Virus record (IMG/VR): IMGVR_UViG_3300021960_000418
Span: 1 to 26,944 of that record
Strand: one strand, 5' to 3'
Length of the DNA: 26,944 nucleotides
Source of the DNA: a virus
Under the pieces are notes generated by a model, which was not told where the DNA came from, did no database searches, and worked only from the letters and a program-made list of their open reading frames with translations. This document shows positions 1-18,949 of this stretch, piece by piece. The position numbers and the translations under genes were made by a program. How positions within the stretch are numbered: position 1 is the first letter of the stretch; the number at the start of each line of letters is the position of its first letter.

Positions 1-372
1 GGAAAAGTATTATCGGAAATTACTCAATTTTGTCAGCAAACAAATACACATTTATTTTTAGTGGCGCACCCTAGAAAAATAGAAAGCGAAAACGGAAACT
101 ATAAAAAACCAACTTTGTATGATATAAGTGGCTCTGCTGACTTTTTTAATAAGGCTTATAACGGTTTAATAGTTTATAGATGTATTGGACAACGTACTAA
201 ATTTGATTCTGATATTGTTAAAATGTATGTTGAAAAAGTAAAACGAAAAGAAAACGGACAACTAGGCGATTTTGATATTGCTCCTGATTTTAAAAACGGC
301 GGTGTTTATAGGGATGTAGATTTAAATGCAAAAAGGTTTGAAGTTGTAACTGATGATAATGTACCATTTTAA
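1..372 (+). CDS. DnaB/T7 gp4-type replicative helicase, C-terminal fragment
   Basis: The reading frame is open from the first base, so the start lies outside the window and only the last 123 residues are seen. The stretch HLFLVAHPRK, followed by LYDISGSADFFNKAYNG and LIVYR, is typical of the C-terminal part of hexameric RecA-fold helicases of the DnaB/TWINKLE/T7 gp4 group. In these, the His ends a sensor strand and the GSADFFNKA segment lies near the DNA-binding loop. Such proteins unwind DNA at the phage replication fork and are often fused to a primase; whether that is so here cannot be seen. The tail DFDIAPDFKNGGVYRDVDL is the usual end of this family. The Walker motifs lie upstream of the window. 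The next gene starts 12 bases after the stop, probably in the same operon. Confidence 0.8.
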   Translation, partial: GKVLSEITQFCQQTNTHLFLVAHPRKIESENGNYKKPTLYDISGSADFFNKAYNGLIVYRCIGQRTKFDSDIVKMYVEKVKRKENGQLGDFDIAPDFKNGGVYRDVDLNAKRFEVVTDDNVPF

Positions 373-384
373 AAATAAAATAAT

Positions 385-1545
385 ATGAAATACATAGAAA
401 GAAAAAATAAAATTATAAATGATAAATATACTAAATATGTGTATGAAGCGTTTGACATACAAAACAAAGAAGAAACAATTGTAAAAATACCAATAAACTT
501 TAGTGAATGTAAAACATTTGATTGGAATATTGGTGTAATTTATGGAGGTTCTGGTACTGGTAAAACAACATTATTAAAAGAATTTGGAGATTTAACTTTA
601 GATGAATTTGATGATAAAAAGCCTTTAATTAGTAATTTTGATTGGTTAGATCCAAAAGAAGCAACATTTTTATTGTCATCTATGGGATTAGCATCAGTTC
701 CAACTTGGCTTAGACCATTTAGTTTATTAAGTAATGGAGAACAATATAGAGCATCACTTGCCTATAAAGTTGGTAAAGCAAAAGAAAATGATGTTATATT
801 AATTGATGAGTTTACAAGTGTAGTTGATAGAGATGTTGCAAAAGCAATGAGTAATGCTTTACAAAAATACATAAGGAGAAATAATAAAAAAATAATTCTT
901 GCATCTTGTCATTTTGATATAATGGAATGGTTGTTGCCAGATTGGACTTATTCACCGTTAAAAGGGCGTCTCGAGAGAGCGTCAAGTCGAAGGCAAAGAC
1001 CAAAAATTAAATTACAGATATTTCGATGTAGATATGAAACTTGGAATATATTTAAACAATATCACTATTTAACTGAAGATTTATCTAAAAGTTCAAAATG
1101 TTTTTTAACTACTTGGAATAATAAGCCTGTAGCTTTTAATGCTGTTTTACCTTTACCAAGTGGTACATTAAAAAATGCTTTTAGAATGAGTAGAACAGTT
1201 GTATTGCCTGATTATCAAGGATTAGGGTTAGGTGGATTTGTTAGTGATTATGTTGCTAAATTATACGTAAAAGATGGTAAAAGATTTTATGCTAAAACAT
1301 CAAATCCTGCATTATGGAATAAAAGAGAAAATTCAAATAATTGGAGAGTTTGCGATGTGCAAAACAACTTAGATAAAATTAGAAAAGAAAACGAAAAAGG
1401 AGGACAACAAAGAAAAGTTAGTGTAACAAAATCATTTGAATTTATAGGAAATGTTGATTGTGTAAAAGAAGATCAATTAAACATATTAAAATTTAATGCC
1501 AACGCTTACAAAGAAGTTTCACAAAATCAAATAAGTTTATTTTAA
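385..1545 (+). CDS. ABC-ATPase / GNAT acetyltransferase fusion, candidate DNA base modifier
   Basis: A 386-residue soluble two-domain protein. Residues 1 to about 195 are an ABC-type ATPase: Walker A GGSGTGKTT (54-62), signature-like LSNGEQYRA (115-123), Walker B DVILIDEFTSVVD (136-148) and switch His in ASCHFD (173-178). Residues about 205-345 are a GNAT fold with acetyl-CoA loop VVLPDYQGLGLGG (272-284), preceded by FKQYHYL (223-229). There is no membrane segment and no permease gene nearby, so this is not a transporter. GNAT-fold Mom of phage Mu modifies adenine in DNA, and by analogy this enzyme may modify DNA or another phage macromolecule; that is inference. The extreme C-terminus, QISLF, matches the beta-clamp-binding pentapeptide QL(S/D)LF, which would tether it to replicating DNA. 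It lies between a helicase gene and small genes. The ATG follows an A-rich leader. Domains are certain; substrate is not. Confidence 0.8.
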   Translation: MKYIERKNKIINDKYTKYVYEAFDIQNKEETIVKIPINFSECKTFDWNIGVIYGGSGTGKTTLLKEFGDLTLDEFDDKKPLISNFDWLDPKEATFLLSSMGLASVPTWLRPFSLLSNGEQYRASLAYKVGKAKENDVILIDEFTSVVDRDVAKAMSNALQKYIRRNNKKIILASCHFDIMEWLLPDWTYSPLKGRLERASSRRQRPKIKLQIFRCRYETWNIFKQYHYLTEDLSKSSKCFLTTWNNKPVAFNAVLPLPSGTLKNAFRMSRTVVLPDYQGLGLGGFVSDYVAKLYVKDGKRFYAKTSNPALWNKRENSNNWRVCDVQNNLDKIRKENEKGGQQRKVSVTKSFEFIGNVDCVKEDQLNILKFNANAYKEVSQNQISLF

Positions 1546-1547
1546 AT

Positions 1548-1724
1548 ATGAAAATAGGAGAAAAATTTACTTTTTATAGTAATGGTAAACATAGAAAAGC
1601 TATATTTTTAGAACAAAAAAAAAATAAAATAAAAGCTATTATTTGTGATGAAAAAATGCAAGGTATTAAAGTGGAAATATTTGAGACACAAATAATTGAT
1701 GATAATCAAATTAGTATGTTTTAA
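1548..1724 (+). CDS. 58-residue protein ending in a clamp-binding-like motif
   Basis: A short gene starting two bases after the stop of the ABC/GNAT gene. It encodes 58 residues beginning MKIGEKFTFYSNGKHRKAIF. The protein is basic in its first half (KHRKAIFLEQKKNKIKA), lacks a signal or membrane segment, and may form a small beta-rich fold. Its last five residues, QISMF, closely resemble QISLF at the end of the upstream protein, and both fit the bacterial sliding-clamp-binding consensus QL(S/D)LF. The tight spacing implies co-translation and a shared role. I do not recognise a family. It could be a small partner or adaptor of the ABC/GNAT enzyme. The alternative is that the two similar ends are chance or a short duplication. 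Confidence 0.6.
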   Translation: MKIGEKFTFYSNGKHRKAIFLEQKKNKIKAIICDEKMQGIKVEIFETQIIDDNQISMF

Positions 1725-2162: not shown

Positions 2163-2600
2163 TTGAAAAAAAAAGTAAACATTGCATCTGTAAAAGAAAA
2201 TCCGGACAATCCAAGATTTATAAAAGATTCTAAATTTAAAAAATTATTCAAGTCAATTAAGGCGTTTCCTGAGATGTTAGAGAAAAGGCCAATAGTAGTT
2301 GATGAGAATATGGTTGTTCTTGGCGGAAATATGCGTTTAAAGGCTTGTAAGTCTGCCGGGTTGTTTGAGGTTTGGATTGATATTGCACAAGGTTGGACAG
2401 AAGAACAGAAGCAAGAGTTTATTGTTAAAGACAATGTAGGCTTTGGAGAGTGGGATTGGGATATACTAGCCAATGAATGGGATGTTCAAAAATTAGTAGA
2501 ATGGGGGGTTGATCTACCCGTTTATGATGTTCCTATTGATGACGACCAAGACGACAAAAACGATACAGATAAAGAGGTTTGCGAATTGTGCGGAAAATAA
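2163..2600 (+). CDS. ParB/Srx-fold protein (phage ParB-like nuclease-domain family)
   Basis: A 145-residue protein opening with MKKKVNIASVKENPDNPRFI. NPDNPR (13-18) and LGGNMRLKA (53-61) are the usual ParB N-terminal signatures; the second corresponds to the GERR-type box that binds the nucleotide in ParB CTPases. A segment KDNVGFGEWDWDIL (89-102) follows, as is usual in phage members. In known phages such proteins sit near terminase or methyltransferase genes and are thought to act on DNA; their biochemistry is poorly known. No methyltransferase domain follows here. The acidic tail ends with a CELC pair (140-143) that could bind metal. The start must be TTG at 2163, because the next in-frame ATG would remove the NPDNPR motif. 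The promoterless 8-base gap ties it to the upstream operon, which ends at the terminator at 2688. Confidence 0.75.
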   Translation: MKKKVNIASVKENPDNPRFIKDSKFKKLFKSIKAFPEMLEKRPIVVDENMVVLGGNMRLKACKSAGLFEVWIDIAQGWTEEQKQEFIVKDNVGFGEWDWDILANEWDVQKLVEWGVDLPVYDVPIDDDQDDKNDTDKEVCELCGK

Positions 2601-3174: not shown

Positions 3175-3549
3175 ATGGCAACAAAAACCGACATATTAAA
3201 AAGGAATCTTTTAGAAGCGCTAGAAAAATCGCTCGGAGTAGTTACAACGGCTTGTAAAATAGTTGATTGTAATAGGAGTACATTCTACAAGTATTACAAT
3301 AATGACCAAGACTTTAAAGCGTCTGTTGATGAACTTCAAAACCTAACTTTAGACTTTGCTGAATCACAATTACACCAACAAATAAAAGACGGAAACACAA
3401 CTGCAACAATATTCTATTTAAAGACCAAAGGCAAAAAGCGTGGTTATGTAGAGCGTAAAGAGGTAGAGATGACCGCAGAGGTTAGTACGAGCAAACTATC
3501 AAACGAAGCAAAAAAGAAAATAGACGACATTCTAAACGATGAGTATTAA
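3175..3549 (+). CDS. terS: Terminase small subunit
   Basis: This 124-residue protein directly precedes, and overlaps by 11 bases, the large terminase gene, the usual place for the DNA-recognition subunit. Residues about 22-60 (VTTACKIVDCNRSTFYKYYNNDQDF) form a helix-turn-helix of the type found in terminase small subunits and resolvase-like proteins. FAESQLHQQIKDGNTTATIFYLKTKGKKRGY (about 83-113) is a common signature: this segment recurs in small terminases that act on unprocessed concatemers. The lysine-rich C-terminus probably contacts the large subunit. It binds the packaging start site and recruits the motor. Length is normal. The start ATG follows a promoter by four bases. Confidence 0.8.
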   Translation: MATKTDILKRNLLEALEKSLGVVTTACKIVDCNRSTFYKYYNNDQDFKASVDELQNLTLDFAESQLHQQIKDGNTTATIFYLKTKGKKRGYVERKEVEMTAEVSTSKLSNEAKKKIDDILNDEY

Positions 3550-4894
3550 CGAAATAATTAAACAAAAATGTGAAGATTCGCTTTTGTTTTTTACTCGTTA
3601 TATTTTCAAAGAAAACACCGGAAATAAATTCGAGGCAGCAGAGTTTCATAGAACATTAGCCAACACATTACACAAAGTACATAACGGCGAAATTAAGCGC
3701 CTTATAATTAATATACCTCCACGATACGGAAAAACTGAAATAGCCGTTAAAATGTTTATCGCTTGGACACTTGCTAAAAATCCAATGGCGAAGTTTATTC
3801 ATTTATCTTATTCCGATTCGTTGGCGCTTGACAATAGTTCAATGACAAAAGAATATATTAATTCAGATGCCTATCAACGCATTTGGGATTTACAACTTAA
3901 AAAGGATTCACAATCTCAAAAGAAATGGTACACAACGCAAGGGGGTGGAGTTTATGCAACATCTTCAGGGGGTGCAATTACCGGGTTTGGTGCGGGTACT
4001 GGTGGAGCAATTATAATTGATGATCCATTAAAACCTGATGACGCATTATCAGATGTTAGGCGGTCGTTTATAAACAATCGATACAATACAACTATTCGTT
4101 CAAGGGTTAATGATAGAGATGTTCCTATTATCGTAATTATGCAGAGGCTACACGAGGAAGATTTGAGCGGTTATTTATTAGACGGCGGAAGTGGAGAGCA
4201 ATGGCATCACTTAAAGTTAGCAGCATTGGATGACAATAACAATGCGTTATGGCCTGAGAAACATTCTTTTGAGGAACTTGAAGCAATACGCCAAGCGGAT
4301 AGATACACTTTTAGTGGTCAGTATTTACAAATCCCTTCGCCTCCAGAGGGTGGAGAGTGGAGAAAAGATTGGTTTAATATTATACACAGAGCCGAGTTAC
4401 CGAGCGATATATCTTTTGAAATGTATATTGATGGCGCTTATACCAAAGACACAAGAAACGATCCGACCGGAATACAAATAAGCGGTAAAAGTGGCGACAA
4501 TCTTTACATATTTAAAAGCATTGATAAGTATTTAGAGATGCCTGAACTAAAAAACTTTGTTACCTCTTTTGTGCAATCGTGTGGCGTTCCAATATCTCAA
4601 ATATTAGTCGAGCCTAAAGCATCCGGAAAATCACTTGTGCAGCTATTAAGGCGTGAAACTAGATATAATGTATCAGAAATAAAAACTAACTTTGTTAGAT
4701 ACTCTAAGATAGAACGTGCGAGAGCATCCTCGCCATTTATTGAAGGAGGTAGAGTTTTTATAGTTAAAGATAATTGGAATGATGCGTTTTTACAACAAGT
4801 TAGCACGTTTCCAAATGCTAAACACGATGAACACATTGACGTAACTTCCTATGCTATCGAAAGGAATTTAATTAACAACTTTTTTGTAGTTTAA
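3539..4894 (+). CDS. terL: Terminase large subunit (packaging ATPase and nuclease)
   Basis: This 451-residue motor protein docks on the portal, cuts concatemeric DNA and pumps it into the prohead. The ATPase domain has a Walker A-like motif IPPRYGKTE (59-67), ahead of a conserved HLSYSDSLA segment (88-96), and Walker B AIIIDDPL (157-164). The IVIMQRLHEEDLSGYLL segment (198-214) is a typical coupling motif. The RNase H-like nuclease domain begins near residue 290, with probable metal ligands D298 (MYIDGAY), E358 (LVEPKASGKS) and D434 (KHDEHIDVTSYA). Length and order are normal for the terminase_6/Terminase_3-like group. It overlaps the small subunit gene by 11 bases, so the two are co-translated. 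Confidence 0.92.
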   Translation: MSINEIIKQKCEDSLLFFTRYIFKENTGNKFEAAEFHRTLANTLHKVHNGEIKRLIINIPPRYGKTEIAVKMFIAWTLAKNPMAKFIHLSYSDSLALDNSSMTKEYINSDAYQRIWDLQLKKDSQSQKKWYTTQGGGVYATSSGGAITGFGAGTGGAIIIDDPLKPDDALSDVRRSFINNRYNTTIRSRVNDRDVPIIVIMQRLHEEDLSGYLLDGGSGEQWHHLKLAALDDNNNALWPEKHSFEELEAIRQADRYTFSGQYLQIPSPPEGGEWRKDWFNIIHRAELPSDISFEMYIDGAYTKDTRNDPTGIQISGKSGDNLYIFKSIDKYLEMPELKNFVTSFVQSCGVPISQILVEPKASGKSLVQLLRRETRYNVSEIKTNFVRYSKIERARASSPFIEGGRVFIVKDNWNDAFLQQVSTFPNAKHDEHIDVTSYAIERNLINNFFVV

Positions 4895-14720: not shown

Positions 14721-14728
14721 TATTTTTG
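14721..14728 (+). promoter_or_regulatory. -7 box TATTTTTG before the adhesin block
   Basis: A perfect TAnnTTTG box lies 18 bases before the ATG at 14747. No TTG is visible at the right distance upstream. It would drive the paralogue cluster independently. Confidence 0.5.
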
Positions 14729-14746
14729 TTTTTAAATTACAAAAAT

Positions 14747-16051
14747 ATGTCGTTAGCGGATAAAGCAAGTCTTTTACTTATACCAACCGGTTACAAATCA
14801 CAAAAAGTTTATTCTATTTTTCCTACTGATGGAGTTGGAGATTTTGATTTTTCACGATCAAGTAGCGCCACAAGAATAGCAAAAAACGGATTAATAACAA
14901 CTGTTGCTGCAAATGTTCCAAGACTAGAGTATCCTTTAATTGATGGCGTAGTAAGTGGATGTCCTAGTTTGTTATTAGAGCCACAGAGAACTAATTTAAT
15001 ACAGTATTCAGAAGATTTTAGTCAATCGTATTGGACTAAATTAAGCATAAGCATAACAAGTAATTCAGTTATATCGCCAGATGGAAGTTTAAATGCAAGT
15101 AGTTTTACGCAATCTGGTGGAACTGCGGAGCATAGTATTTATCACAGTTTACCTACCATAACAAGTGGAGCGAAATATACTGGTAGTGTTTTTTTAAAAT
15201 ATGATGATTGGCAATACTTTCAAGTTAGGTTTAGAAGTGGTGGATTTGGAGGAGAAATTGGAGTAATATATGATGCTATAAACAAAACTATTACTACTAC
15301 AAATGGAAGTTTATTAAGCTATAAAGTTGAAGAGTATGCTAATGATTGGGTTAGAATTTCTATTGTAGTGCAATCAACAAGTGCAAGTAATTATGCTGGA
15401 CTTGTGGTTGCTTATAACAATTCTGGAAATGTTTTTAATGACCCAGATAGTGTACCTAATACTGGAGCAAACGTTTATATATTCGGTGCTCAAATTGAAC
15501 AAGGTTCTTACCCAACTTCTTACATACCAACTAACGGAAGTGCAGTTACTCGTTTAGCAGAAACTTGTAATAACTCTGGAGATGCTTCTACGTTTAATGA
15601 TTCAGAAGGTGTTTTGATGGCAGAGATAAGTTTTTCTGAAATATCAAGATTAAGCATAAATGATGGAAGTACGAGTAATAGATTGATAATAGGACAAGAT
15701 GGAGATGGTGATATAAGAGCATTGGTAACATCATCAACAACACCTATCTTTGATGTAGCGAGTGGAGTTGTATTAAATGTATTGGGAGAAACTTTAAAAA
15801 TGGCATTAAAATACAAGCAAAATGATTTTGCATTATGGGTTAATGGTGTTGAGGTTGCAACTGAAAATAGTGGTGCTACTCCAAGTGGTTTAAATGTTTT
15901 AGAATTTACAGCTCAAGGTCTTAATACTTACGGAAACACTAAACAAATACAATACTACAATTCAGCATTAACAGATAGCGAACTAGAACAACTAACGTCT
16001 TGGACATCTTTTTCAGATATGGCGACTTCTCAACTTTATAGCATCGAGTAG
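14747..16051 (+). CDS. Receptor-binding/LamG-like tail protein, paralogue 1
   Basis: Starting at the ATG at 14747 the protein has 434 residues. It shares with the genes at 16597 and 17816 a N-terminal segment with a R-SSSATRI-KNGLI pattern and LLLEPQRTNLI-YSEDF. The middle is beta-rich; SYPTSYIPTNGSAVTRLAET marks the junction to a C-terminal concanavalin/LamG-like domain ending YNSALTDSELEQLTS. Such proteins form parts of phage tails that bind surface glycans. Unlike its two paralogues it starts with a hydrophobic helix, MSLADKASLLLIPTGY, so its attachment to the virion may differ. Reading frame is intact. It shows no CCGG after the first 45 bases, unlike the head genes. Confidence 0.7.
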   Translation: MSLADKASLLLIPTGYKSQKVYSIFPTDGVGDFDFSRSSSATRIAKNGLITTVAANVPRLEYPLIDGVVSGCPSLLLEPQRTNLIQYSEDFSQSYWTKLSISITSNSVISPDGSLNASSFTQSGGTAEHSIYHSLPTITSGAKYTGSVFLKYDDWQYFQVRFRSGGFGGEIGVIYDAINKTITTTNGSLLSYKVEEYANDWVRISIVVQSTSASNYAGLVVAYNNSGNVFNDPDSVPNTGANVYIFGAQIEQGSYPTSYIPTNGSAVTRLAETCNNSGDASTFNDSEGVLMAEISFSEISRLSINDGSTSNRLIIGQDGDGDIRALVTSSTTPIFDVASGVVLNVLGETLKMALKYKQNDFALWVNGVEVATENSGATPSGLNVLEFTAQGLNTYGNTKQIQYYNSALTDSELEQLTSWTSFSDMATSQLYSIE

Positions 16052-16053
16052 AT

Positions 16054-16590
16054 ATGGAAAACTGGAAAGACATAAAAGGTTACGAAGGTCATTATCAAGT
16101 TAGTGATTTAGGTAGAGTTAAATCGTTAAAAAGATGGGTAGACAATAAAGGTAATGGTGGTTATTTTGTAAAAGAAAAAATATTAAAATCAAACATAAAA
16201 AATGAACGCTACCCAATTGTAGGATTAACAAAAAATAACACAAGAAGAAAGTTCAGAATTCATCAATTAGTAGCTATGGCTTTTTTAAACCATAAACCTT
16301 GTGGGCATAAATTGATAGTTGACCATATAGATAACAATCCTTTAAATAACAATGTAGAAAACCTACAAATAGTAACAAGTAGAGTTAACACTACTAAAGA
16401 CAGAAAAGGTTATTCAAGTAAATACGTAGGTGTTTATTATAATGACAAAGGAATTAATAGATGGAGAGCCACAACAAGTGTTAACGGAAAGGTTGTAAGT
16501 TTAGGTTCTTTTGATACAGAAGAAAGAGCATCGATAGCATACAATTTTGCATTGACGCAATTAGATAAATTAAAAGATTATACACAATAG
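16054..16590 (+). CDS. HNH homing endonuclease (NUMOD4-HNH-AP2)
   Basis: A 178-residue protein with NUMOD4 at residues 2-26 (WKDIKGYEGHYQVSDLGRV). The HNH core runs from about 68 to 108: H70, then VDHIDNNPLNNN (89-100) and VENLQIVT, with catalytic H91. A DNA-binding AP2-like domain occupies about 121-172 (YVGVYYND, WRATTSV, LGSFDTEERASIAYNFA). It is a self-spreading DNA cutter that sits two bases after one tail paralogue and six before the next, and all catalytic residues are intact. It is a free-standing gene, not an intron: both neighbours are complete. Similar genes often lie in tail-fibre clusters and spread by cutting phages that lack them. Confidence 0.92.
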   Translation: MENWKDIKGYEGHYQVSDLGRVKSLKRWVDNKGNGGYFVKEKILKSNIKNERYPIVGLTKNNTRRKFRIHQLVAMAFLNHKPCGHKLIVDHIDNNPLNNNVENLQIVTSRVNTTKDRKGYSSKYVGVYYNDKGINRWRATTSVNGKVVSLGSFDTEERASIAYNFALTQLDKLKDYTQ

Positions 16591-16596
16591 AATAAT

Positions 16597-17814
16597 ATGG
16601 CACAGAAACTTAAATTCGGTAACGGAACTTGGGCGACAAAGAAAGGCTCTACGTTGTCTTATAATGACGAAGGTGGAAATTATAAACCTCTACCCTTTAC
16701 AACAACTAGAAATAGTATTGCAACAAGAGTAAACAAAGAAGGATTAATAGAAGTAGTTGGTAATGATGTACCAAGAATAGATTATACAGATAGTGCAGAT
16801 GGTGTTCTTTTGTTAGAGAATAGTTCTACTAACCTTGTAACTTATTCAGAAGATTTTAGTGATAGTAGTTGGACTCCAACACCTTCTTTAGTTAGTGTTT
16901 CCTCAAATCAATATATCAGCCCAGATGGAAGTCAAAATGCTGATAGATTGCAAATTCAATCAACAAGTTCATTAGCTATACTAGCAGATTTAGTTTCTCA
17001 TACAATAAATGTAGATATAACTATTTCGGCTTGGGTAAAAAGCAACACTAACTCCGTAGAAAAAATAAAACTATTTGGAGATTACGGAACTACAAATGCA
17101 GTTTCAAGTGAATTTTTAGTAACAGATACTTGGAAAAGAATAGAATTTACATTTACACCTACTGCTACTGGAAATAGAAATTTAGGTTTTTACAATGTTT
17201 CAAATTTAGCAACAGATATACAAATTTATGGATTTCAAGCAGAAGTAAACGACTTTGCTACATCCTACATCCCAACCTCTGGCTCAACACTTACAAGAGT
17301 AGCTGATACTGCAAGTGGTGCTGGTAATAGTGAAGTGTTTAATGATAGTCAAGGTGTACTATTTGCTAATATAGCAGCTTTGTCGAATGATGGTACAAAT
17401 AGGTTTATTTCTTTAACAGATGGTAGTAACGATAATAGAGTTTTATTTGGGTATAGAGCAGCTTCAAATCAAGTATTTGCAAGAATTGAGGGTAATAATT
17501 CAGCTTCTGTTGATTTAACTAATGTTGTTAGTGATACCGAAATAGTTATTAAATTAGCTATTTACTACGATAGTTCTTTTAATTACAAAATGTATCTTAA
17601 TGGTTTTTTAGTTGATAATGCAATAGGTACAGATAGTATTATAGGACTTGATAGATTTGATTTTACAAATGCAACGGGTACTGAAAACTTCTACGGAAAG
17701 ACAAAAGAAATTGGCTACTACGATACTGCATTAACAGACGAAGAATTAGAATATCTTACAAGTTATAGGTCATTAAACGAATTAGTAACAGAATTAAACT
17801 TAAACACATTATAA
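16597..17814 (+). CDS. Receptor-binding/LamG-like tail protein, paralogue 2
   Basis: A 405-residue protein. The N-terminus KLKFGNGTWATKKGSTLSYN and then NYKPLPF is shared with the next gene, not with the first paralogue. It is followed by a common core: TRVNKEGLIEVVGNDVPRID, LLLENSSTNLVTYSEDFSDS and a beta-sandwich. TSYIPTSGSTLTRVADT introduces the C-terminal LamG-like domain, ending EIGYYDTALTDEELEYLTS. It likely forms part of the tail-tip or fibre that binds polysaccharide. The gene starts six bases after the HNH gene and ends one base before the next gene, so it is in the same transcript. Confidence 0.7.
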   Translation: MAQKLKFGNGTWATKKGSTLSYNDEGGNYKPLPFTTTRNSIATRVNKEGLIEVVGNDVPRIDYTDSADGVLLLENSSTNLVTYSEDFSDSSWTPTPSLVSVSSNQYISPDGSQNADRLQIQSTSSLAILADLVSHTINVDITISAWVKSNTNSVEKIKLFGDYGTTNAVSSEFLVTDTWKRIEFTFTPTATGNRNLGFYNVSNLATDIQIYGFQAEVNDFATSYIPTSGSTLTRVADTASGAGNSEVFNDSQGVLFANIAALSNDGTNRFISLTDGSNDNRVLFGYRAASNQVFARIEGNNSASVDLTNVVSDTEIVIKLAIYYDSSFNYKMYLNGFLVDNAIGTDSIIGLDRFDFTNATGTENFYGKTKEIGYYDTALTDEELEYLTSYRSLNELVTELNLNTL

Positions 17815-17815
17815 A

Positions 17816-18949
17816 ATGGCAAACACATTAAAATTTGGTAATGGAGAATGGTACGGAAAGAAAGATACTATCCTTGCCTATAATGATGAAAATAGTAATT
17901 ACAAACCTTTACCATTTGATTTTAGTAGAGCATCAAAGGCTACTGTTATAAATAAAGATGGTTTAATTGAAGAGGTAGGTAGTGGACAACCAAGAATTGA
18001 CTTTAAGGATGATAGTAAAGGTGCTTTATTGTTAGAGCCGAGTAGGAGTAATTTGATACCTTATTCGGAAGATTTTAGTAATGGTGTTTGGTCTAAAATA
18101 GATTCAATTGTTTCTCTTAATCAAGATATATCTCCAGACGGGACAAATAACGCTACATTGTACACCTCAACAAGTGCATCTAATAGATTGGAGACTAATT
18201 TCTCACACCCTACATCGGTTAGAACATTTAGCATTTGGGTAAAAAGTTATAATAATATTTCTGTAAGTGGGAGATTGACGTTTTCTGGGTTGAATGATTT
18301 AAATTTTACAACCACTAATGAATGGCAAAGAATATCTACAACAAGAGATATAAGTGGAGATACTTTTAAGTGTTCTTTAAGATTAACAAATGACAATGAA
18401 TCTGTTTTAGTCTACGGATTCCAACTAGAAGAAGGCAGTTACGCTACATCGTATATTCCTACATCTGGAAGTGCAGTAACGAGGTTGGCTGATACTTGTA
18501 GTCAAACTGTACCAGATGGTGTTATAGGACAAACAGAGGGGAGTGTTTATGTTGAAGTAAATATATCAAATACAACATCCAAAACAATATTAGCTTTAGA
18601 TACTGGTAGTGCAAGTAATTTTATAATATTAGATACAAGCAGTAGTTTAAGTCCTAAAATTTTAGTTAGACAATCAAGTGGTTCTTTTCCAGCAATTATT
18701 ACTGGAACTACAATGAGTTATGGTGTTAATAAGATTGCTTTCTGTTATAAATCTGGAGATTATGCAATGTATGTAAATGGCGTATTGTCTGGAACAAGTA
18801 CAAGCACCACATTTCCAAGTGGAATTATAAAAAGAATTTCTGTCGGAGCAAATTCAAGTTATGGATATTTATCTGATACAGTAAACGATGTTAAACTTTA
18901 CAACACAAGATTATCAAACGCAGAACTACAAGCATTAACACAAGTGTAA
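17816..18949 (+). CDS. Receptor-binding/LamG-like tail protein, paralogue 3
   Basis: A 377-residue protein, nearly collinear with paralogue 2 at the N-terminus (TLKFGNGEWYGKKDTILAYN, NYKPLPF, ATVINKDGLIE) and at the TSYIPTSGSAVTRLADT junction. The C-terminal domain is shorter and ends LYNTRLSNAELQALTQV. Variation is concentrated between residues about 90 and 190 and in the C-terminal domain, as expected if these parts select the host receptor. No enzyme motif is seen. A 129-base gap without a gene follows, holding only an imperfect stem (ATAACT with AGTTAT near 19040). Confidence 0.7.
   Translation: MANTLKFGNGEWYGKKDTILAYNDENSNYKPLPFDFSRASKATVINKDGLIEEVGSGQPRIDFKDDSKGALLLEPSRSNLIPYSEDFSNGVWSKIDSIVSLNQDISPDGTNNATLYTSTSASNRLETNFSHPTSVRTFSIWVKSYNNISVSGRLTFSGLNDLNFTTTNEWQRISTTRDISGDTFKCSLRLTNDNESVLVYGFQLEEGSYATSYIPTSGSAVTRLADTCSQTVPDGVIGQTEGSVYVEVNISNTTSKTILALDTGSASNFIILDTSSSLSPKILVRQSSGSFPAIITGTTMSYGVNKIAFCYKSGDYAMYVNGVLSGTSTSTTFPSGIIKRISVGANSSYGYLSDTVNDVKLYNTRLSNAELQALTQV

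What the first reader, a model, noticed from the sequence alone, without database searches (positions are those of the whole stretch)
385..1545. Soluble ABC-ATPase fused to a GNAT domain, a candidate Mom-like modification enzyme
Seen: a complete ABC cassette (Walker A 54-62, signature 115-123, Walker B 136-148, switch His) joined to a GNAT domain with an intact acetyl-CoA loop (272-284), with no membrane segment and no permease nearby. Known: Mu Mom is a GNAT-fold protein that modifies adenine in phage DNA and protects from restriction. Inference: the ATPase domain may load or move the GNAT domain on DNA, giving a new type of base modification; the operon also holds a ParB-like gene and a replicative helicase.
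Basis: partly seen in the sequence, partly recalled or inferred. Interest (0 to 1): 0.75.

Follow-up and report, generated by a model that had tools for sequence, protein, structure and literature searches.

The report
Phage ABC-ATPase–acetyltransferase, predicted DNA modifier
This marine phage gene fuses an ATP-powered motor to an acyl-transfer enzyme; it belongs to a widespread, untested phage family already predicted to decorate phage DNA, and new clues here (it replaces a known DNA-modifying gene in one pair of phages, and carries a likely replication-clamp tag) make that prediction testable.

Summary
The ORF at 385-1545 encodes 386 aa: a complete soluble ABC ATPase plus an intact GNAT domain, both predicted with high confidence (pLDDT 90). 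It belongs to phrog_11143 (function unknown, E=3e-138), with 61 matching phage records and 399 cellular-genome loci (at least 25 of the 80 fetched lie beside a terminase gene). Iyer and colleagues named this fusion, with the pT24 copy (57% identical to ours) as example, and predicted an uncharacterised acyl modification of a DNA base (2013, 2021). It is not a Mom family member: PF25680 does not match and a profile-profile comparison is null. The Mom-like role gains circumstantial support. In two Porphyromonas Mu-like phages with 89%-identical flanks, one carries a true mom gene and the other ABC-GNAT plus a formyltransferase at the same site. ABC-GNAT is usually preceded by a ParB-like gene, often overlapping by exactly 22 nt. 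Most close relatives (70 of 79) end in a sliding-clamp-binding motif, here QISLF, against 2% of neighbouring genes. Best reading: a clamp-recruited, ATP-gated acyltransferase acting on phage DNA bases (confidence about 0.6). Chemistry, base and donor are unknown; no experiment was found.

The parts
385..1545 (+). ABC-ATPase-GNAT fusion protein, 386 aa (phrog_11143)
385..996 (+). ABC ATPase domain (about residues 1-204)
   Evidence: VIA-align Z up to 14.8 to ABC nucleotide-binding domains; catalytic residues invariant
544..570 (+). Walker A GGSGTGKTT (residues 54-62)
727..753 (+). ABC signature LSNGEQYRA (residues 115-123)
790..828 (+). Walker B and D-loop DVILIDEFTSVVD (residues 136-148), catalytic E142
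910..912 (+). switch histidine H176
1000..1458 (+). GNAT domain (about residues 206-358)
   Evidence: best matches RimI, Naa50 and other N-acetyltransferases, Z 12-13.5
1198..1236 (+). acyl-CoA loop VVLPDYQGLGLGG (residues 272-284; Q278, G281, G283)
1528..1542 (+). C-terminal QISLF (residues 382-386), predicted beta sliding-clamp-binding motif
   Evidence: 70/79 close relatives against 27/1279 other genes; consensus QL[S/D]LF or QxxLF from PMC12309361
1548..1724 (+). 58-aa gene directly downstream, ending NQISMF; travels with the ABC-GNAT gene in P12024S and four IMG/VR relatives
2163..2600 (+). ParB-like protein, same family as the ParB-like gene that overlaps ABC-GNAT genes elsewhere (profile E=5e-34)
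1..372 (+). 3' part of a primase/helicase gene (context)
3175..3549 (+). terminase small subunit (context)
3539..4894 (+). terminase large subunit (context)

Best explanation
A soluble, ATP-driven acyltransferase that modifies exocyclic amines of bases in the phage's own DNA, protecting it from host nucleases. The GNAT domain would bind an acyl-CoA and transfer the acyl group. The ABC domain would dimerise on ATP, as ABC domains do, and gate DNA engagement, base exposure or release. In this flavophage-type branch the C-terminal QISLF would tether the enzyme to the replication sliding clamp so that new DNA is modified during replication. A ParB-like partner, and in some lineages a formyltransferase, would assist or tailor the product. 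Shown: both domains, invariant catalytic residues, no membrane part, gene linkages, the cassette swap with mom, the conserved tail. Inferred: DNA as substrate, acyl chemistry, clamp binding, ATP gating, protection.
For: Complete ABC and GNAT catalytic residues in 54 diverse homologues and a confident model. Published prediction of an acyl DNA-base modification for the same family, naming pT24. Cassette swap: Porphyromonas phages BK068092 and BK068096 share 89% identity over 5.6 kb upstream and 81% over the last 91 bp; between these, one has ABC-GNAT plus formyltransferase, the other a true Mom (PF25680 E=6e-56). ParB-like gene directly upstream in 47/68 cellular-genome loci and 5/13 phage loci, with an identical 22-nt overlap in phages or genomes of several proteobacterial classes and Firmicutes; a Mom gene in Microbacterium phage Antuna also follows an overlapping ParB-like gene. 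Formyltransferase directly downstream in Porphyromonas, Pseudomonas and Gordonia phages and a Delftia plasmid. Clamp-binding-type C-terminus in 70/79 close relatives against 2.1% of other genes. Two-gene versions (separate ABC and GNAT) in Lactococcus and Streptococcus phages show that the halves work together.
Against: No biochemical data. The nearest solved GNAT folds are protein or small-molecule acetyltransferases (RimI, Naa50). No detectable sequence relation to Mom. The ParB-like link is loose in the window's own branch (8 of 80 loci). The clamp motif is absent from nearly all planctomycete and distant phage members. Aeromonas phage PX29 carries both Mom and ABC-GNAT, so they need not be interchangeable. 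The cassette swap is one pair of phages, and the site may simply be a hotspot for accessory genes.
Confidence: 0.6

Rival explanations
1. Host-takeover protein acetyltransferase: the GNAT acetylates a host protein (RNA polymerase, a replisome or nucleoid protein), with the ABC domain as an ATP-dependent switch.
For: Closest folds of the GNAT half are RimI and Naa50, protein N-acetyltransferases; phage GNATs that acetylate RNA polymerase (phiKMV Rac) are discussed in PMC7824862; the clamp tail could equally direct it to a replisome protein.
Against: Swap with mom at the same site, repeated pairing with ParB-like genes and formyltransferases, and spread over very different hosts do not suggest one host protein target.
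Confidence: 0.15
2. RNA acetyltransferase of the TmcA/Kre33 type in function: an ATPase plus GNAT that acetylates tRNA or rRNA bases, for instance against tRNA-targeting defences.
For: Foldseek with the full model ranks TmcA (2zpa) 13th and Kre33 in the 90S pre-ribosome (5jpq) 8th, the other ATPase+GNAT proteins in the list (the identity of chain 5jpq_j as Kre33 is recalled, the row names only the 90S pre-ribosome).
Against: The domains do not superpose as a whole (rmsd 16 A), TmcA has a helicase-type ATPase without an ABC signature (recalled), and the clamp tail and ParB-like link point to DNA.
Confidence: 0.1
3. ABC transporter component or metabolic enzyme, as many records annotate it ('ABC transporter', 'iron siderophore transporter').
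For: Record annotations only.
Against: No membrane segment in the protein or nearby ORFs; invariant fusion or pairing with a GNAT domain.
Confidence: 0.03
4. Member of the Mom family itself, making Mom's methylcarbamoyl-adenine, with an added ATPase.
For: Both have an invariant His-Tyr pair early in the GNAT domain and an invariant Arg before the CoA loop region; same genomic niche.
Against: No PF25680 match; profile-profile probability 0.1%; canonical QxxGxG loop where Mom has a different sequence.
Confidence: 0.07

Closest known systems
ABC-ATPase-coupled GNAT predicted to modify DNA bases (Iyer et al. 2013 NAR gkt573, not readable here; restated in PMC7824862 with Tenacibaculum phage pT24)
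   Same: Same domain pair; pT24 protein 57% identical over residues 1-321; same predicted role
   Different: The passage read does not mention the clamp-type tail, the formyltransferase partner or the swap with mom; the 2013 paper itself could not be checked
PHROG phrog_11143 (unknown function)
   Same: Full-length match, E=3e-138; also holds the Leptospira, Gordonia, Porphyromonas and planctomycete relatives
   Different: None in kind; this copy adds a C-terminal extension ending QISLF
Mu Mom (PF25680; structure 8bv8)
   Same: GNAT-fold phage protein, same genomic site in one phage pair, sometimes the same ParB-like neighbour
   Different: No ATPase, no sequence-level homology detected, no canonical acyl-CoA loop
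TmcA / Kre33-NAT10 RNA cytidine acetyltransferases
   Same: ATPase plus GNAT acting on a nucleobase amine (function recalled; structures matched)
   Different: Helicase-type ATPase rather than ABC; extra RNA-binding domains; RNA substrate

Membership tests
phrog_11143 / predicted ABC-GNAT DNA modifier (Iyer et al.) | ABC ATPase domain followed by GNAT domain in one protein or adjacent genes | tested here: met
phrog_11143 / predicted ABC-GNAT DNA modifier (Iyer et al.) | acylates a base in phage DNA | not testable with these tools
   no experiment exists in the papers found
ABC ATPase superfamily | Walker A, LSGGQ-type signature, Walker B Glu, D-loop, switch His | tested here: met
   LSNGEQ variant; invariant residues in 54 sequences; Z up to 14.8
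ABC transporter | transmembrane domain or linked permease | tested here: not met
   no TM-like stretch in the protein or the nearby ORFs tested
GNAT superfamily | GNAT fold and Q/RxxGxG/A acyl-CoA loop | tested here: met
   Q278, G279 invariant, G281, G283 nearly so; Z 13.5
Mom (PF25680) | match to the Mom profile | tested here: not met
   (control: Mu Mom and two other Mom genes match)
Mom (PF25680) | structural match to Mom (8bv8) | tested here: inconclusive
   8bv8 not among the listed rows
Mom (PF25680) | makes methylcarbamoyl-adenine | not testable with these tools
   needs nucleoside mass spectrometry
sliding-clamp-binding proteins | C-terminal QL[S/D]LF or QxxLF motif | tested here: met
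   QISLF, conserved in 70/79 close relatives
sliding-clamp-binding proteins | measured binding to DnaN | not testable with these tools
   needs a binding assay
TmcA/Kre33 | helicase-type ATPase module | tested here: not met
   ABC signature and ABC fold instead

The most novel reading that the evidence does not exclude
A replication-coupled DNA acylation system: a clamp-tethered ABC-GNAT that installs a new acyl group on DNA bases at the fork, in some lineages further tailored by a formyltransferase, forming a second, independent solution to the anti-restriction role of Mom.
Probability: 0.3. Interest if true: 0.75.

Novelty: new member of a known kind. Interest (0 to 1): 0.45.

Why it matters
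If the family acylates DNA bases, it is a broadly distributed and chemically uncharacterised phage DNA modification, easily missed because many records call it an ABC transporter. The cultured carriers (flavophage P12024S, Leptospira LE3/LE4, Lactococcus P335, Gordonia phages) and the mom / ABC-GNAT phage pair make a prediction open since 2013 directly testable. The clamp motif would be a simple way to couple modification to replication.

Tried and rejected
Com-like activator upstream, as in Mu mom: the small ORFs upstream of ABC-GNAT in L003 and L004 lack Com's zinc-finger cysteines. Mom homology by profile-profile comparison: null. Mom structure 8bv8 did not appear among the listed fold matches, which is not evidence of absence. 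Defence system (PADLOC): only weak ABC and AAA cross-matches. COG2401, recalled as an archaeal ABC+acetyltransferase fusion: no paper found and not testable here. Iyer 2013, Iyer 2009 and Krishnan 2020 are not held. Formyltransferase in the other fetched loci: none beyond the named cases (that small profile was built from three sequences and listed only one of its own three, so it is insensitive).

Full report
Observation. The catalytic residues of both domains are invariant or nearly so over 54 diverse homologues. The AlphaFold2 model (pLDDT 90.2, pTM 0.82) gives an ABC domain (residues 1-204, Z up to 14.8) and a GNAT domain (206-358, Z up to 13.5). No membrane segment or permease was found nearby. 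The window is a 26,944-base linear virus record. A 1.3-kb stretch holding this gene and the 58-aa gene after it is 82% identical in DNA to Nonlabens phage P12024S, while the rest of the first 4.9 kb does not match that phage at this sensitivity, so the cassette seems mobile.

Prior knowledge. The family is phrog_11143, unknown function. PMC7824862 states that a GNAT coupled with an ABC ATPase, exemplified by Tenacibaculum phage pT24, was predicted to perform an uncharacterised acyl modification of a DNA base, citing Iyer et al. 2013. The pT24 gene is 57% identical to this one. The 2013 paper is not held, so how much of the context below it already described is unknown.

Distribution. tblastn finds 61 phage records from flavobacterial, Vibrio, Aeromonas, Leptospira, Porphyromonas, Lactococcus, Streptococcus, Pseudomonas, Gordonia and other phages; an IMG/VR scan confirmed 178 matching stretches and a bacterial/archaeal genome scan 399. 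The genome copies fetched are mostly planctomycete; 25 of the 80 lie near a terminase gene, so at least a part are prophages. In Lactococcus P335 and Streptococcus Javan141 the ABC and GNAT halves are separate adjacent genes.

Context. A ParB-like gene lies directly upstream in 47 of 68 genome loci and 5 of 13 phage loci. The overlap is exactly 22 nt in loci of Delta- and Alphaproteobacteria, Endozoicomonas, Lactococcus, Streptococcus and Pseudoalteromonas. In the window the ParB-like gene (2163-2600) belongs to the same family (E=5e-34) but lies downstream, and in the window's own branch the link is loose (8 of 80 loci). A formyltransferase gene follows ABC-GNAT in Porphyromonas and Pseudomonas Mu-like phages, in Gordonia AnClar (annotated tRNA-methyltransferase, PF00551 E=5e-10), and on Delftia plasmid pKV29.

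Swap with mom. Porphyromonas phages BK068092 and BK068096 are 89% identical over 5.6 kb up to this site and 81% over the last 91 bp. Between those stretches BK068096 has a Mom family gene (PF25680 E=6e-56), while BK068092 has ABC-GNAT plus formyltransferase. This is the right end of the phage record, where Mu keeps mom. In Microbacterium phage Antuna a Mom gene follows an overlapping ParB-like gene. These are parallels of context, not of descent: the protein does not match PF25680 and the profile-profile comparison of the GNAT half with Mom is null. Aeromonas phage PX29 carries both genes.

Clamp motif. The protein ends SQNQISLF. Of 79 complete close relatives 70 end in this type of motif (43 under a strict pattern), against 27 of 1,279 other genes in the same loci (4 strict). 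The consensus bacterial clamp-binding motif is QL[S/D]LF, more generally QxxLF, and in B. subtilis PolC it sits at the C-terminus (PMC12309361). The relatives share ancestry, so 70 of 79 is not 70 independent events. The downstream 58-aa protein ends NQISMF. Planctomycete and most distant phage members lack the tail, so it is a feature of this branch.

Mechanism and rivals. The best reading is an ATP-gated acyltransferase on phage DNA bases, here tethered to the sliding clamp (0.6). A protein acetyltransferase is the main rival (0.15), since the nearest GNAT folds are RimI and Naa50. A TmcA-like RNA role (0.1) is prompted by Foldseek ranks 8 and 13 for a 90S pre-ribosome chain (Kre33, recalled) and TmcA, with poor overall superposition. 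No step of the chemistry is shown.

Verdict. The sequence observation is right; the idea was already published as a prediction; the new contributions are circumstantial but make it testable. Interest 0.45.

Noticed in passing
window 1548-1724: 58-aa gene directly after ABC-GNAT, ending NQISMF (a second clamp-type tail); homologues sit next to ABC-GNAT in P12024S and four IMG/VR loci; no family match.
   Followed up: partly
L172:6760-6832 (Tenacibaculum phage pT24): The pT24 copy is split into two ORFs in the same frame, which implies an in-frame stop: decayed gene, sequencing error or readthrough.
   Followed up: no
L170:2312-2962 (Gordonia phage AnClar): Gene annotated tRNA-methyltransferase matches the formyltransferase family PF00551 (E=5e-10) and phrog_9240 (8e-38).
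   Followed up: yes
L173 and L213 (Aeromonas phage PX29): One phage encodes both a Mom family protein and an ABC-GNAT.
   Followed up: partly
Acinetobacter plasmids of about 105-107 kb (e.g. NZ_CP096896.1:74325-74672): 147 Acinetobacter plasmid records carry a related ABC segment (39% over residues 69-188) in a gene annotated ATP-binding cassette protein; possibly phage-plasmids.
   Followed up: no
window 14726-18949: Three tandem related proteins (441, 405, 377 aa) interrupted by an HNH-like gene at 16054-16590; seen in the translations only.
   Followed up: no
L003:5780-5908, L004:5726-5875: Mu-like phages carry a small related-looking ORF (42 and 49 aa) overlapping the start of ABC-GNAT by 4 nt; it is not Com-like.
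   Followed up: partly
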